A DNA stretch of 64,000 nt from Chamaelirium japonicum (lineage: Eukaryota > Streptophyta > Magnoliopsida > Liliales > Melanthiaceae), in contig OX393550.1 of the NCBI GenBank assembly GCA_947650365.1, positions 55,122,569-55,186,568 of the forward strand, in the 5' to 3' direction. The notes under the pieces are model-generated. The model ran no database searches. It was not told the origin of the DNA and saw only the letters and a program-made list of their open reading frames with translations. Positions 1,141 through 5,500 of this stretch are shown here, one piece after another. Made by a program: the position numbers and the translations under genes. Within the stretch, counting starts at the first letter, position 1. Each line of letters begins with the position of its first letter.

Positions 1141-1538
1141 AGGTCAGGATCGGTTGACCCAACAAAATTTGACCCAGCAAATAACCCAGCACCCTTTGAG
1201 GCACCTAGAGGTTTTAGAATGGGCTGATTTTTTGTAGACATGTTGTCTATGATATGTTGATCATCCTCACAAAAAATCAGCCCATTCTAAAACCTCTAGG
1301 TGCATCAAATGAGATCTTCAAATCAACGGTTAAAATTGACAGTAAAAAACCGTTGATTTGAAGAGCGCATTTGATGCACCTAGAGGTTTTAGAATGGGCT
1401 GATTTTTTGTGAGGATGATCAACATACCATAGACGACATGTCTACAAAAATTCAGTCCATTCTATAACCTCTAAGTGCATCAAAGGGTGCTGGGTTATTA
1501 ATGGGTCAAAATTTGCTGGGTCATCCGATCCTGACCCT
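1141..1538. mobile_element. Foldback MITE family A, copy 1
   Basis: About 398 bp between two (TA)n tracts. Terminal repeats AGGTCAGGATCGG and CCGATCCTGACCCT, then GACCCAGCAAAT, form the outer arm. Each half holds a second hairpin with arms of about 38 nt around the words CCTCTAGGTGCATCAAATG and GATTTTTTGT. The centre is a third hairpin with arms CAAATCAACGGTT and AACCGTTGATTTG. No coding capacity. Two more copies lie at 3333 and 38728. Confidence 0.85.
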
Positions 1539-1680
1539 ATATATATATATATATATATATATATATATATATATAGAGAGAGAGAGAGAGAGAGAGAGAG
1601 AGAGAGAGAGAGAGAGAGAGAGAGAGAGAGAGAGAGAGAGAGAGAGAGAGAGAGGGAGGGAGGGAGGGAGGGAGGGAGAG
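1539..1680. repeat. (AT)n then (GA)n then (GGGA)n microsatellite
   Basis: About 37 bp of AT, about 80 bp of GA and six GGGA units lead into the next foldback element. The long Glu-Arg and Leu-Ser frames across it are artefacts of the repeat. Confidence 0.95.
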
Positions 1681-2097
1681 AGAACGGGAAATGAGCTTCC
1701 AACCTATTTCGGCGAAATGGGCAGCCACCCATTTGAAGCCCGTAGGAGTTTTAGAATGTGCTGATTTTTTGTGAGTTTTAGAATGGGCTGATTTTTTGTG
1801 AGCACAAGCACCTTATCTTAGATAGAACACCCACAAAAAATCAACACATTCTAAAACTCCTAGGGGCATCAAATGTTAGAAGTTTTATCGAACGTTCGTT
1901 GTAATCGTTAATCTGAAATATAACATTTGATGCCTCTAAAAGTTTTAGAATGTGCTAATTTTTTGTGGGGGTGCTATCTAATGTAAGGAGCTTATGCGCA
2001 CAAAAAACAGCACATTCTAAGATTCCTAGGGGTGTCAAATGGGTGGCTGCCCATTTCGTCGAAATAGGCCGCCAGCCTATGCCTCGTATCCTTATTC
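1681..2097. mobile_element. Foldback MITE family G
   Basis: Arms contain GAAATGGGCAGCCACCCATT at the left and its complement around AATGGGTGGCTGCCCATTTC at the right. The interior holds two inverted copies of the shared module, recognisable by CACATTCTAAAACTCCTAGG and CTTAGATAGAACACCCAC. The left half carries a short internal duplication of TTTTAGAATG. The right end abuts CCT(CT)n(TA)n. Confidence 0.75.
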
Positions 2098-2175
2098 CTC
2101 TCTCTCTCTCTCTCTCTATATATATATATATATATATATATATATATATATATATATATATTTGTGTGTGTGTGT
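2098..2175. repeat. (CT)n(TA)n(TG)n compound microsatellite
   Basis: About 20 bp CT, 44 bp TA and 13 bp TG between foldback elements G and E. Confidence 0.9.
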
Positions 2176-2906
2176 AGAAAAGGGATCCTACATTGAGGTG
2201 TAGCTTCGTTGCTACACCTCTGGTGTAGTTTACCACCCTAGAAGTTTTAGAATTTGATAATTTTTTGTGGATGTGTTCTCTAGGGTAAGGTGATCATCCT
2301 CATAAAAAATCAACAAATTCTAAAACTTCTTGGGTCATCAAATGTTCGAAGCTTTAACGACCGTTCATTGTAACCGTTAATTTTACTTAGCACAATCACC
2401 TTGACTTAGATAGCACATCCACAAAAAAATCAGCCATTCTAAGGCCTCTAAGTTATAAGTACATGAAATCTAAAAGACTTTATCGACTGTTCGTTTTAAT
2501 TGTTAGTTTGAAGGGCACATTTGATAAGTCTAAAGGCTTTAGAAAGTGCTGATTTTTGGTGGATGTGCAATCAAAGGCAAGACGATCATGCTGACAAAAT
2601 ATCAATAGCTTCTAAAACCTCTATATGATGATTTGAAAATCGGTGTAAACATTTCAGTGCAAAAACAGTGCTCCCTGATCATGATTCTCGATCCAGTGAG
2701 AAACTCTTATATGCGAAACTTTGTGCGAAACCAACCTTGAGGTTTCAGAATTTGATGAAACTTGGTAGGCAGGCTACCTATGCCATGTTGATCATCCGTA
2801 CCAAAATTCATTGAATTCTAAAACCTCTAGGGGCATCAAATGTTAGAAGATTTACTGACTGTTCATAAAAATCGTAAATTTGATTATCAAATTTGATGCC
2901 CCAAGA
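2176..2906. mobile_element. Foldback MITE family E, copy 1, plus rearranged module fragments
   Basis: The first ~225 bp hold an end with the small palindrome GAGGTGTAGC...GCTACACCTC, then a full module (TAGAAGTTTTAGAATTTGAT ... CATCAAATG). From about 2400 to 2906 three or four partial modules follow in mixed order, each with the GATCATCCTnACAAAA or CACATCCACAAAAAA core. This looks like several broken elements run together. Individual borders within it are uncertain. Confidence 0.55.
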
Positions 2907-3253
2907 GGTGATACATTGCGGCCTGGTAACATGCGGCTTAACGTGCAGCCACCCCCTTCCGGGGCATTTTGGGAAATTTTTTTTGGGGATTGATCACCCA
3001 CCCTTGAATAACGCACAAAAAAAATTTCAGCTCGATCCAAGCCCTGTAGGCCGTCCAAATGTGATCGACTTTTATCGGTCGTTCATTTTTTTCGTCATTT
3101 TGATCAACACATTTGGACGGCATACAGGGCTTGGATCGGGCTGAAATTTTTTGTGTGTGCTATCCAAGGGTTGGTGATCATTCCAAAAAAAAAAAATTCC
3201 CAAAATGCCCCGGAAGGGGGTGCCGCACGTTACCGGCCGCAATGTATCACTAC
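2907..3253. mobile_element. Foldback MITE family D, copy 1
   Basis: About 347 bp with terminal repeats GTGATACATTGCGGCC and GGCCGCAATGTATCAC and subterminal CCCCCTTCCGGGGCATTTTG and its complement. The interior pairs CCAAGCCCTGTAGGCCGTCC with its inverse near 3116. The module core is GATCACCCACCCTTGAATAA, a diverged form of the core seen in families A, B, E, G and H. The right end abuts (CT)n(TA)n. Confidence 0.8.
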
Positions 3254-3332
3254 TCTCTCTCTCTCTCTCTCTATATATATATATATATATATATATATAT
3301 ATATATATATATATATATATATATATATATAT
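3254..3332. repeat. (CT)n(TA)n compound microsatellite
   Basis: About 19 bp of CT then about 60 bp of TA joining foldback D1 to foldback A2. Confidence 0.9.
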
Positions 3333-3716
3333 AGGTCAGGATCGGATGACCTAGCAAATTTTGACCAATTAATAACCCAACACCCTTTGATGCACTTAGA
3401 GGTTATAGAATGGGCTGATTTTTTTGTAGACATGTCGTCTATGGTATGTTGATCATCCTCACAAAAAATCAGCCCATTCTTAAACCTCTAGGTGCATTAA
3501 ATGCGCTCTTCAAATCAACGGTTTTTGACTGTCAATTTTAACCATTGATTTGAAGATCGCATTTGATGCACCTAGAGGTTTTAGAATGGGCTAAATTTTT
3601 GTGAGGATGATCAACATACCATAGACAACATGTCTACAAAATATCAGCCCATTCTAAAACCTCTAGGTGCCTCAAAGTGTGCTGGGTTATTTGCTGGGTC
3701 ATCCGATCCTGACCCT
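3333..3716. mobile_element. Foldback MITE family A, copy 2
   Basis: About 384 bp with ends AGGTCAGGATCGGATGACC and TCATCCGATCCTGACCCT, strongly similar to copy 1 along its whole length, including the three-hairpin interior. It sits between (TA)n tracts; the right-hand tract is only six bases, followed by a family C element. Confidence 0.85.
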
Positions 3717-3722
3717 ATATAT

Positions 3723-4243: not shown

Positions 4244-4303
4244 ATATATATATATATATATATATATATATATATATATATATATATATATATATATATA
4301 TAT
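4244..4303. repeat. (TA)n microsatellite
   Basis: About 60 bp of TA between foldbacks D2 and C2. Confidence 0.95.
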
Positions 4304-4448
4304 AGGGGCATGCTACAATGCGGCATGCGGTAAGTGCGGCACCGCACTACAACCGTCTGATGCACCGCTGCGTGCATGCGATGCACATAGCGAGTGCATC
4401 AGACTGTTGCAGTGTGGTGCCGCACTTGCCGCATTATAGCATGCCCCA
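4304..4448. mobile_element. GC-rich foldback MITE family C, copy 2
   Basis: 145 bp with ends AGGGGCATGCTACAATGCGG and CCGCATTATAGCATGCCCC, folding along its full length. The inner part CTGATGCACCGCTGCGTGC forms its own hairpin. It is flanked by (TA)n on both sides. It has no coding capacity. Confidence 0.85.
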
Positions 4449-4509
4449 TATATATATATATATATATATATATATATATATATATATATATATATATATA
4501 TATATATAT
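4449..4509. repeat. (TA)n microsatellite
   Basis: About 60 bp of TA joining foldbacks C2 and E2. Confidence 0.95.
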
Positions 4510-4856
4510 CGTTGCTGCACCTCTCGCTTATTTATCTCCCTAGAATTTGATGATTTTTGGTGGATATATTGTCTTGGGTAAGGTGATCATCCTCACCAAA
4601 AATCAGTATATTCTAGAACTTCTAGGGTCATCAAATGATCTAGGCAAAATTAACGGTTACAGTGAACGGTCGATAAAGTTTCGAACATTTGATGACCCTA
4701 GAAGTTTTAGAATTTACTGATTTTTTGTAAGGATGATCGCCTTACCCTAGAGAACACATCCACCAAAAATCACAAAATTTTAAAACTTCTAGGATGGTAA
4801 ACAACGCCTGAGGTGCAACAACGATGCTGTACATCAGGTCTAGACTCCTTTTTCTC
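4510..4856. mobile_element. Foldback MITE family E, copy 2
   Basis: About 347 bp. CGTTGCTGCACCTC at the left pairs with GAGGTGCAACAACG near 4811. Two inverted modules contain TCTAGGGTCATCAAATGAT and ATCATTTGATGACCC, with a centre around AACGGTTACAGTGAACGGTC. The core reads GATCGCCTTACCCTAGAGAA. It ends in CTTTTTCTC before (TA)n. Confidence 0.75.
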
Positions 4857-4898
4857 ATATATATATATATATATATATATATATATATATATATATAT
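4857..4898. repeat. (TA)n microsatellite
   Basis: About 40 bp of TA between foldbacks E2 and C3. Confidence 0.95.
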
Positions 4899-5050
4899 AG
4901 GGGCATGCTATAATGCGGCATGCGGTAAGTGCGGCACCACACCGCAGCCGTCTGATGCACCCGCTATGTGCATCGCATGCACGCAGCGGTGCATCAGACG
5001 GTTATAGTGCGGTGCCGCACTTACCGCATGCCGCATTATAGCATGCCCCT
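4899..5050. mobile_element. GC-rich foldback MITE family C, copy 3
   Basis: 152 bp with nearly perfect ends AGGGGCATGCTATAATGCGG and CCGCATTATAGCATGCCCCT, followed by GCATGCGGTAAGTGCGGC and its complement. It is the best-preserved C copy and is flanked by (TA)n on the left and (CT)n(TA)n on the right. Confidence 0.88.
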
Positions 5051-5108
5051 ATCTCTCTCTCTCTCTCTCTATATATATATATATATATATATATATATAT
5101 ATATATAT
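5051..5108. repeat. (CT)n(TA)n compound microsatellite
   Basis: About 20 bp CT then about 39 bp TA between foldbacks C3 and F. Confidence 0.9.
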
Positions 5109-5500
5109 AGTTAGGAAAAAGGGAGCTTGGTCCACTGGATTAGCTTCGTTGCTGGTCCTGTGGACCAGTTGACCACCCTATACGTTTCAGACTTGGTTGA
5201 AACTTGGTGAGTGTGTTATCTTGGGTGAGGTGATCATTCTTACGAAAAATCAACAAATTCTAATACTTTTAGGTTCATCAAATATTAGAAGCCTTTATTG
5301 ATCATTCTAACCGTTAGCTTTTCTTTGCACATTTGATAACTTTAGAATTTTAGAATTTGGTGATTTTTTTGTGAGGATGATCAACTCACCATTGATAACA
5401 TACCCACCAAGTTTCAACAAATTCTGAAACTTGTAGGGTCGTTATTTAGTCCACTAGACCAGCAAGGAAGCTTGTCCGATGAACCCGAAAACCTGTCCCC
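5109..5500. mobile_element. Foldback MITE family F
   Basis: About 392 bp flanked by (TA)n. Near the left end is GGAGCTTGGTCCACTGGA, answered at the right by CCACTAGACCAGCAAGGAAG. An inner small palindrome is GCTGGTCCTGTGGACCAG. Two inverted modules have cores GGTGATCATTCTTACGAAAA and GATCAACTCACCATTGATAA. Confidence 0.7.

What the first reader, a model, noticed from the sequence alone, without database searches (positions are those of the whole stretch)
1141..5500. Foldback MITE superfamily: different termini, one shared ~80-nt module
At least eight kinds of element (A, B, D, E, F, G, H, I) have different terminal repeats, yet each contains the same module in two inverted copies. Its core reads roughly GATGATCA-C-TTACCCTAGA, then CAACACACCCACCAAA, then ATTCTAAAACTTCTAGG, ending CATCAAATG. 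The core differs by family (GATCAACATACCATAGACAA in A, GATCATCTTACCCTAGACAA in B, GATCACCCACCCTTGAATAA in D) but stays alignable. Copies lie at 1141, 1681, 2176, 2907, 3333, 3903, 4510, 5109, 9237, 15989, 23352, 38728, 39199, 45104, 63284 and 63731. Shared interior with swapped ends is the reverse of the usual MITE pattern, where ends are kept and interiors vary. It suggests modular end replacement or an unknown element class.
Basis: partly seen in the sequence, partly recalled or inferred. Interest (0 to 1): 0.85.

Follow-up and report, generated by a model that had tools for sequence, protein, structure and literature searches.

The report
Plant jumping-gene families sharing one interior
A large, probably plant, genome carries thousands of short palindromic non-coding transposons that mostly sit in TA-repeat tracts and share one hairpin interior although their ends differ, apparently because interiors and ends were recombined between families.

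Summary
All 16 listed places carry the module, with no hit in shuffled or reversed windows. Models trained on A, Z, B or C alone find 28-30 of 31 window modules; D, the weakest, finds 12.

The class is known. These are mostly 380-400-bp foldback MITEs in dinucleotide repeats, chiefly (TA)n. One copy outside a repeat has a perfect 10-bp target duplication. A 10.2-kb MULE in (TA)n with a FAR1+MULE frame shares its terminal ~50 bp with one module family. This matches published SaTar/MuTAnT/MiM elements.

The odd part is real. By exact pattern, one core occurs with three end types in 741, 1710 and 1791 half-elements and never with A ends (0; A ends with A core 1809). Interiors are as alike between end types (.87-.88) as within one (.87), while ends are near their shuffled level (.60 against .58.59 against .56). 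S2 ends resemble B/E but S2 interiors resemble Z, with the switch at the module's outer edge; S1 ends are less clear. Recombination between families is best supported; the module's role is inferred. Coral CMITEs are a precedent.

The parts
1141..1537 (.). A-type element between AT/TA tracts; modules 1204-1276(-) and 1403-1475(+); ends AGGTCAGGATCGG / GGGTCAGGATCGG
1684..2097 (.). C-type element between GA and CT tracts; inward modules 1792-1865(+), 1936-2007(-)
2176..2380 (.). E-type half-element (fused, right side lost; borders by eye); module 2236-2309(-)
2381..2640 (.). Piece of an inward-type element (borders by eye); modules 2381-2452(+), 2530-2601(-)
2660..2900 (.). Piece of an element with N-like end (by eye against L006); module 2735-2807(-)
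2908..3252 (.). D-type element; inward modules 2978-3050(+), 3121-3193(-)
3333..3715 (.). A-type element; modules 3395-3468(-), 3596-3667(+)
3904..4242 (.). D-type element, 339 bp between TA tracts; inward modules 3963-4035(+), 4106-4178(-)
4510..4855 (.). B-type element (left outer end short); modules 4539-4602(-), 4721-4793(+)
5110..5500 (.). F-type element between TA and AT tracts; modules 5176-5249(-), 5365-5438(+)
9237..9622 (.). Z-type element; modules 9284-9355(-), 9487-9558(+)
15990..16381 (.). H-type element between AC and TA tracts; inward modules 16075-16147(+), 16218-16296(-)
23352..23415 (+). Lone module fragment, no ends
38728..39109 (.). A-type element; modules 38776-38848(-), 38975-39047(+)
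39200..39592 (.). Z-type element; modules 39261-39332(-), 39454-39525(+)
45104..45346 (.). Right part of a truncated element; module 45220-45292(+)
63284..63602 (.). Z-type element, left side truncated; modules 63285-63335(-), 63471-63539(+)
63731..64000 (.). Z-type element cut by the window end; module 63783-63854(-)
4305..4447 (.). Module-free 143-bp palindrome (GGGGCATGCTATAATGCGG...) in the same SSR array; look-alikes at about 3724-3880, 4899-5051 and 9124-9236 (by eye)

Best explanation
These are non-autonomous Mutator-type (MULE) foldback MITEs of the SSR-targeted kind. SHOWN: most sampled copies lie in (TA)n or other dinucleotide tracts; most are ~380-400 bp; each half is an end cassette of usually about 62 nt (mostly G-rich at the tip), then a hairpin module, then half a spacer. 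The distance from terminus to core is nearly constant (mostly 106-111 nt in outward types) whatever the end sequence. SHOWN: interiors and end cassettes have different histories; S2 has ends related to B/E but a Z-type interior, with the switch in the CCTAGAAGTTTT stretch at the module's outer edge; S1 has the same interior and a third kind of end. SHOWN for one family (M): its end cassette resembles the tip of a 10.2-kb MULE that itself lacks the module. INFERRED: MULE transposases act in trans on the end cassettes. INFERRED: members stacked in the same SSR arrays recombine ectopically within the homologous module, most simply as one conversion tract carrying the whole interior, so that one interior comes to ride on several sets of ends and amplifies with each. 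INFERRED, weaker: the module is kept because its hairpin and spacing help transposition.
For: Homology. SSR location: 26 of 37 automatically paired elements have a dinucleotide tract on both sides, 22 of them TA on both (most of the sample was fetched by core or A-end pattern). In 200 kb at round coordinates, 5 of 6 modules lie within 500 bp of (TA)6+, which covers 6.5% of bases. Length: 19 of 21 SSR-bounded outward elements are 382-400 bp. Terminus-to-core distance. MULE signs: one perfect 10-bp TSD TCTAGATGAA abutting both ends in L002; MULE with ~640-bp TIRs, (TA)n flanks and a FAR1+MULE frame, tip against M ends z 10.5, 74% identity; M ends with a module-type core 543 times. Reassortment: mean end/interior identity within Z .75/.87, Z-S1 .60/.88, Z-S2 .59/.87, S2-B .71/.74, with shuffled-end levels .58.56 and .56 for the last three; trees and AU tests; site map S1 13 B/E-like against 7 Z-like in the end and 1 against 24 in the interior, S2 16 against 6 and 2 against 23, Fisher p 1.2e-5 and 5.2e-6. 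Genome counts, reversed control 0 in each: A+A core 1809, A+Z core 0, S1+Z core 1710, S2+Z core 1791, Z+Z core 741. Whole-interior transfer: in the interior tree one sub-clade (87/89) holds exactly one half of each of the 8 Z, S1 and S2 elements represented by both halves, L002 apart. Hairpin: 85.4% of stem cells paired, 119 double-changed cells against 58.4+-6.4 shuffled.
Against: S1 ends are not clearly B/E-like: S1-B .70 but S1-E .55 (shuffled .56), and S1-A is .68 (shuffled .54; score z only 1.9); the end tree puts S1 apart from S2+B+E. The end tree does not by itself reject Z+S (p-AU .20): the ends are short and unalike. B and E are one half each. Halves of one element and elements of one array (L003 gives 3 of the 5 S elements) are not independent. 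In the stem test the two measures that count pairs or pair types were no better than shuffles (142/500 and 342/500), and covariation may follow simply from palindromy by descent. Only one copy with a TSD and one MULE were found; that MULE's frame looks incomplete and no mobility was seen. No S1...Z mixed-end element was found (0 genome-wide by exact pattern; 38 S1-S1 pairs among 100 listed S1 halves), so no intermediate of end exchange is visible.
Confidence: 0.7

Rival explanations
1. One ancient MITE family whose ends simply mutate much faster than the interior; nothing was exchanged.
For: Ends mostly occupy the same ~62-nt slot and some groups (S1/S2/B, E/B, A/K) are still alignable. Within Z, ends are less alike than interiors (.75 against .87).
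Against: Z-S1 and Z-S2 interiors are as alike as within Z, yet the ends are near the shuffled level. Interiors that alike would predict ends about as alike as within Z (.75). S2 ends are nearer to B/E whereas S2 interiors are nearer to Z.
Confidence: 0.14
2. Modular end replacement in the strict sense: the interior stays put and each end cassette is swapped, perhaps the second end copied from the first across the foldback.
For: The L033:760-1141 element has A ends but a Z-like outer arm in both halves, and its halves differ by only 1.6% over module and inner arm, as if one half had been copied on to the other.
Against: The Z/S difference kept the asymmetry of the two interior halves, so no half-copying there. 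It needs two events and mixed-end intermediates; for S1...Z none was found (other combinations not searched).
Confidence: 0.3
3. The module is a separate small element that inserted, twice and inverted, into different host MITEs.
For: The MULE that matches M ends lacks the module.
Against: The spacer is shared too (part of the interior); the distance to the terminus is nearly constant. Duplications at module borders were not tested.
Confidence: 0.04
4. Chance likeness of AT-rich palindromes or an assembly artefact.
For: None found, except that the D-only model has one shuffled hit of 10.6 bits.
Against: Zero hits of the full profile in shuffles and reversed sequence; thousands of genome copies with zero or few control hits.
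Confidence: 0.01

Closest known systems
SaTar elements (guayule, rice, sorghum, citrus; PMC5907723, parts 1-4 of 6 read)
   Same: TIR elements of 0.4-1.7 kb in (TA)n and other SSRs, non-nested linear arrays of different families, 10-bp TSD outside SSR, autonomous MULEs in the same SSRs with similar TIRs.
   Different: Described as arrays of unrelated individual elements; a shared internal module is not mentioned in the parts read.
MuTAnT (Medicago; PMC4486113, parts 1-2 of 4 read)
   Same: (TA)n target, foldback whose dot-plot legend names four similar segments, G-run termini, 9-nt TSD, Jittery-like autonomous partner.
   Different: One family of 218 copies with two subfamilies; sequence not compared (supplement not readable here).
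Ac-mMITE (pineapple; PMC8449440, passages read)
   Same: SSR-associated Mutator-type MITEs in very high number (21,994 full length), clustered and non-nested.
   Different: Its two families share the distal TIR, the reverse of what is seen here.
MiM (carrot; PMC8227079, passages read)
   Same: 15 families in TA stretches, related Mutator elements found for three.
   Different: No shared interior mentioned in the passages read.
CMITE (coral; PMC2872659, abstract, section 15 and passages read)
   Same: Families with different TIRs and a more conserved internal region, preserved terminal motif, tandem arrays.
   Different: piggyBac type, TTAA TSD, about 100 bp; the word microsatellite does not occur in its text.

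Membership tests
SSR-targeted MULE MITE (SaTar/MuTAnT/MiM) | Flanked by (TA)n or other dinucleotide SSRs | tested here: met
   26 of 37 paired elements on both sides, 10 on one side, 1 on neither; two window pairs (2236/2381, 2735/2978) are false joins across fused pieces; the one with neither is L002, which has a TSD
SSR-targeted MULE MITE (SaTar/MuTAnT/MiM) | 9-10-bp TSD when outside SSR | tested here: met
   L002: TCTAGATGAA on both sides, one case only; the four other hits of the scan lie inside elements
SSR-targeted MULE MITE (SaTar/MuTAnT/MiM) | Terminal inverted repeats / foldback | tested here: met
   one S1 element folds at -214.6 against -44 kcal/mol for shuffles
SSR-targeted MULE MITE (SaTar/MuTAnT/MiM) | Ends similar to an autonomous MULE with transposase in the same SSR setting | tested here: met
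   For the M family only, and that MULE may be defective. For A, Z, S, D and others no partner was found; only three MULE-domain places of 150 scored were opened
SSR-targeted MULE MITE (SaTar/MuTAnT/MiM) | Non-nested modular arrays | tested here: inconclusive
   Arrays in L003, L033-L036 and window 1141-5500 run end to end; nesting was not counted; 2176-2900 is a fusion
SSR-targeted MULE MITE (SaTar/MuTAnT/MiM) | Sequence identity to a named family in a repeat library | not testable with these tools
   No repeat library or plant genome collection is offered by the tools
CMITE-like pattern | Interior more conserved between families than the TIRs | tested here: met
   Clear for Z/S1/S2; E-B .75/.89 on one pair
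CMITE (membership) | TTAA TSD, piggyBac termini | tested here: not met
   One 10-bp TSD and G-rich ends

The most novel reading that the evidence does not exclude
The hairpin interior is a transferable chassis: a selfish body that moves by recombination between the end sets of several independent MULE families inside shared SSR arrays, so that one non-coding interior can be driven by several transposases and outlive each of them, with the hairpin core as the part selection keeps.
Probability: 0.25. Interest if true: 0.75.

Novelty: new variant of a known kind. Interest (0 to 1): 0.52.

Why it matters
MITE families are usually defined by their ends. Here ends and interiors have separate histories, so family counts based on ends would split one lineage, and those based on interiors would merge several. 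It gives a dataset of thousands of copies for asking how MITEs change the transposase they depend on, and whether SSR arrays, which bring different families side by side, are where such exchange happens.

Tried and rejected
Autonomous A element: six long-spaced convergent A-end pairs were seen among the 100 places listed; five were fetched (L032-L036) and all are arrays of A and other MITEs or two A MITEs about 4 kb apart, not one long element; the sixth (~8.7 kb) was not fetched. MULE hits: of three PF10551 places fetched, L030 carries an open FAR1+MULE+SWIM frame with no paired terminal repeats, read as a host FAR1-related gene; L029 showed only local palindromes and no module; L031 with L037 is the MULE.

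Clustering of ends by single linkage at 0.70 with a lenient score collapsed everything (shuffled mean 0.58) and was replaced by z-scores and group means. The identity measure is noisy: A-S1 ends reach .68, above their shuffled .54, with a score z of only 1.9. Within-element homogenisation of the two halves: not seen in general (within .082, between .080-.088 in A.074 against .072-.090 in Z-interior elements), one exception, L033_807. RNA gene: no Rfam match in the window. Print on shared interiors with different ends was sought; five papers were opened, and of these the coral one fits.

Rows dropped or chosen: L004 and L007 left out as overlaps of L003 and L006 (on); 43 of 77 candidate modules hand-picked across families for alignment A1; 41 halves hand-picked for the trees; the L002 rows left out of the Z consensus because their interior is off-type (they were kept and add to the rejection of Z as an interior clade). 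One search counts 94 modules (33 in the window); a few are palindromic echoes, so I use 31 for the window. Regions for the 200-kb sample were at round coordinates on contigs C1-C10. Pattern counts are of half-elements; at least one place is listed twice and one is a fused piece.
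Full report
Setting. The window is G000:C2:55122569-55186568 of a 1.52-Gb genome in 3253 contigs. It looks like a plant (size, element types; inference), but no species is named. The first 5.5 kb hold an end-to-end array of foldback elements separated by TA, GA and CT tracts.

Anatomy. Each module is a hairpin of about 30 pairs around a ~32-nt core; an element carries two, inverted, so it has four similar segments. 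On 43 hand-picked modules the stem is 85.4% paired, 51.9-53.5% when slid by one column, with 119 double-changed cells against 58.4+-6.4 shuffled; the two measures that count pairs or pair types were no better than shuffles (142/500, 342/500). Relatedness inflates such counts. Outside the module lies an end cassette of usually 60-64 nt, mostly G-rich at the tip. In outward types the terminus-to-core distance is mostly 106-111 nt whatever the end sequence; A has a form shortened by 14 nt, and N, one S2 half and a few others depart. SSR-bounded outward elements are 382-400 bp in 19 of 21 cases; the five inward ones are 339-414 bp. In C, D, H and Y types the core is flipped.

What class. 26 of 37 automatically paired elements have dinucleotide tracts on both sides, 22 of them TA on both; two of the 37 are false joins across fused pieces. 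The one with none on either side, in L002, has a perfect 10-bp duplication abutting both ends. Around one of three fetched MULE-domain places lies a 10.2-kb element between (TA)n tracts with ~640-bp inverted ends at 81% identity and a 721-aa frame with FAR1 and MULE domains. Its tip matches the ends of the M family (L009) at 74%, z 10.5. It has no module, while M ends with a module-type core occur 543 times. It stands in an array: to its left a module-free palindrome and then an A-type element, to its right an S2-like element. This fits SaTar (PMC5907723), MuTAnT (PMC4486113), pineapple Ac-mMITE (PMC8449440) and carrot MiM (PMC8227079).

Ends against interiors. Mean end/interior identities, with the shuffled level of the ends: within Z .75/.87; Z-S1 .60/.88 (.58); Z-S2 .59/.87 (.56); S1-S2 .66/.90 (.55); S1-B .70/.74 (.56); S2-B .71/.74 (.56); S2-E .67/.75 (.55); S1-E .55/.75 (.56); A-Z .53/.70 (.54); A-S1 .68/.69 (.54). 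Score-based tests: Z against S1 z 0.9 and 0.3, against S2 2.1 and 2.8; S2 against B 7.5; S1 against S2 6.0, against B 5.4, against A 1.9. So S2 ends belong with B/E; S1 ends are ambiguous; neither is close to Z. In trees of 41 hand-picked halves the ends make Z one clade (98/99) and join S2 with B and E (94/99), S1 standing apart, whereas the interiors mix Z, S1 and S2 (99/98 without L002) and reject both Z alone (p-AU 6.6e-7) and S+B+E (1.6e-4). The end data do not reject Z+S (.20) or S+B+E (.40), and the groups were named after the identities were seen. Site by site, S1 and S2 are more B/E-like than Z-like in the end and Z-like in the interior, with the change in CCTAGAAGTTTT (Fisher p 1.2e-5 and 5.2e-6).

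Genome counts by exact gapped pattern, reversed control 0 in each: A end+A core 1809; A end+Z core 0 (89); S1+Z core 1710 (98); S2+Z core 1791 (130); Z+Z core 741 (109). These are half-elements, and undercounts. A place with an S1 end and a Z end at element distance was found 0 times (113); among the 100 listed S1 halves there are 38 S1-S1 pairs, and none with the 30 listed Z halves of the same part of C1 (128).

Mechanism. In the interior tree one sub-clade (87/89) holds exactly one half of each of eight elements: Z at 39200 and 9237 and in L001, two S1 and three S2. The interior thus kept its left-right asymmetry while the ends differ. One transfer of the whole interior as a conversion tract between array neighbours explains this with one event; replacement of both ends needs two. 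A different event is seen in L033:760-1141: A ends, a Z-like outer arm in both halves, and halves only 1.6% apart; the strings printed suggest a few more such copies. That looks like one recombined half copied on to the other. Neither route was observed directly. The role of the module (transposase contact, hairpin or spacing) is inference.

Novelty. The element class is known. A shared interior with different ends is known from coral CMITEs, piggyBac type (PMC2872659). I found no report of it for SSR-targeted MULE MITEs in the searches named in Tried and rejected; most subscription papers and all supplements were out of reach. I file it as a new variant of a known kind.

Noticed in passing
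3724-3880, 4305-4447, 4899-5051, 9124-9236: Short GC-rich palindromes starting roughly GGGG(C/A)TGCT..AATGCGG in the same TA arrays, without the module: another SSR-targeted family.
   Followed up: partly
L031/L037 (C7:18868805-18878995): 10.2-kb MULE in (TA)n with ~640-bp inverted ends, standing in an array with a module-free palindrome and an A-type element on the left and an S2-like element on the right; a SWIM-like piece (by eye) is in a separate downstream frame.
   Followed up: partly
L030:2002-4392: 796-aa open frame with FAR1, MULE and SWIM domains and no paired terminal repeats, probably a host FAR1-related gene.
   Followed up: partly
56416-56793 (-): Frame with a zf-RVT domain (Pfam 2.5e-22), probably a LINE-type remnant; seven other frames scanned gave no family.
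   Followed up: no
33361-33503 and 37374-37505: Two separate two-copy arrays of nearly the same 70-bp unit.
   Followed up: no
36727-36914: 23-bp tandem repeat TGCTACAATGATTTCACTATAGC in two arrays.
   Followed up: no
9681-10094: Degenerate ~20-bp repeat (ATATTTCGAGGGCGGTAAT-like) next to the Z element.
   Followed up: no
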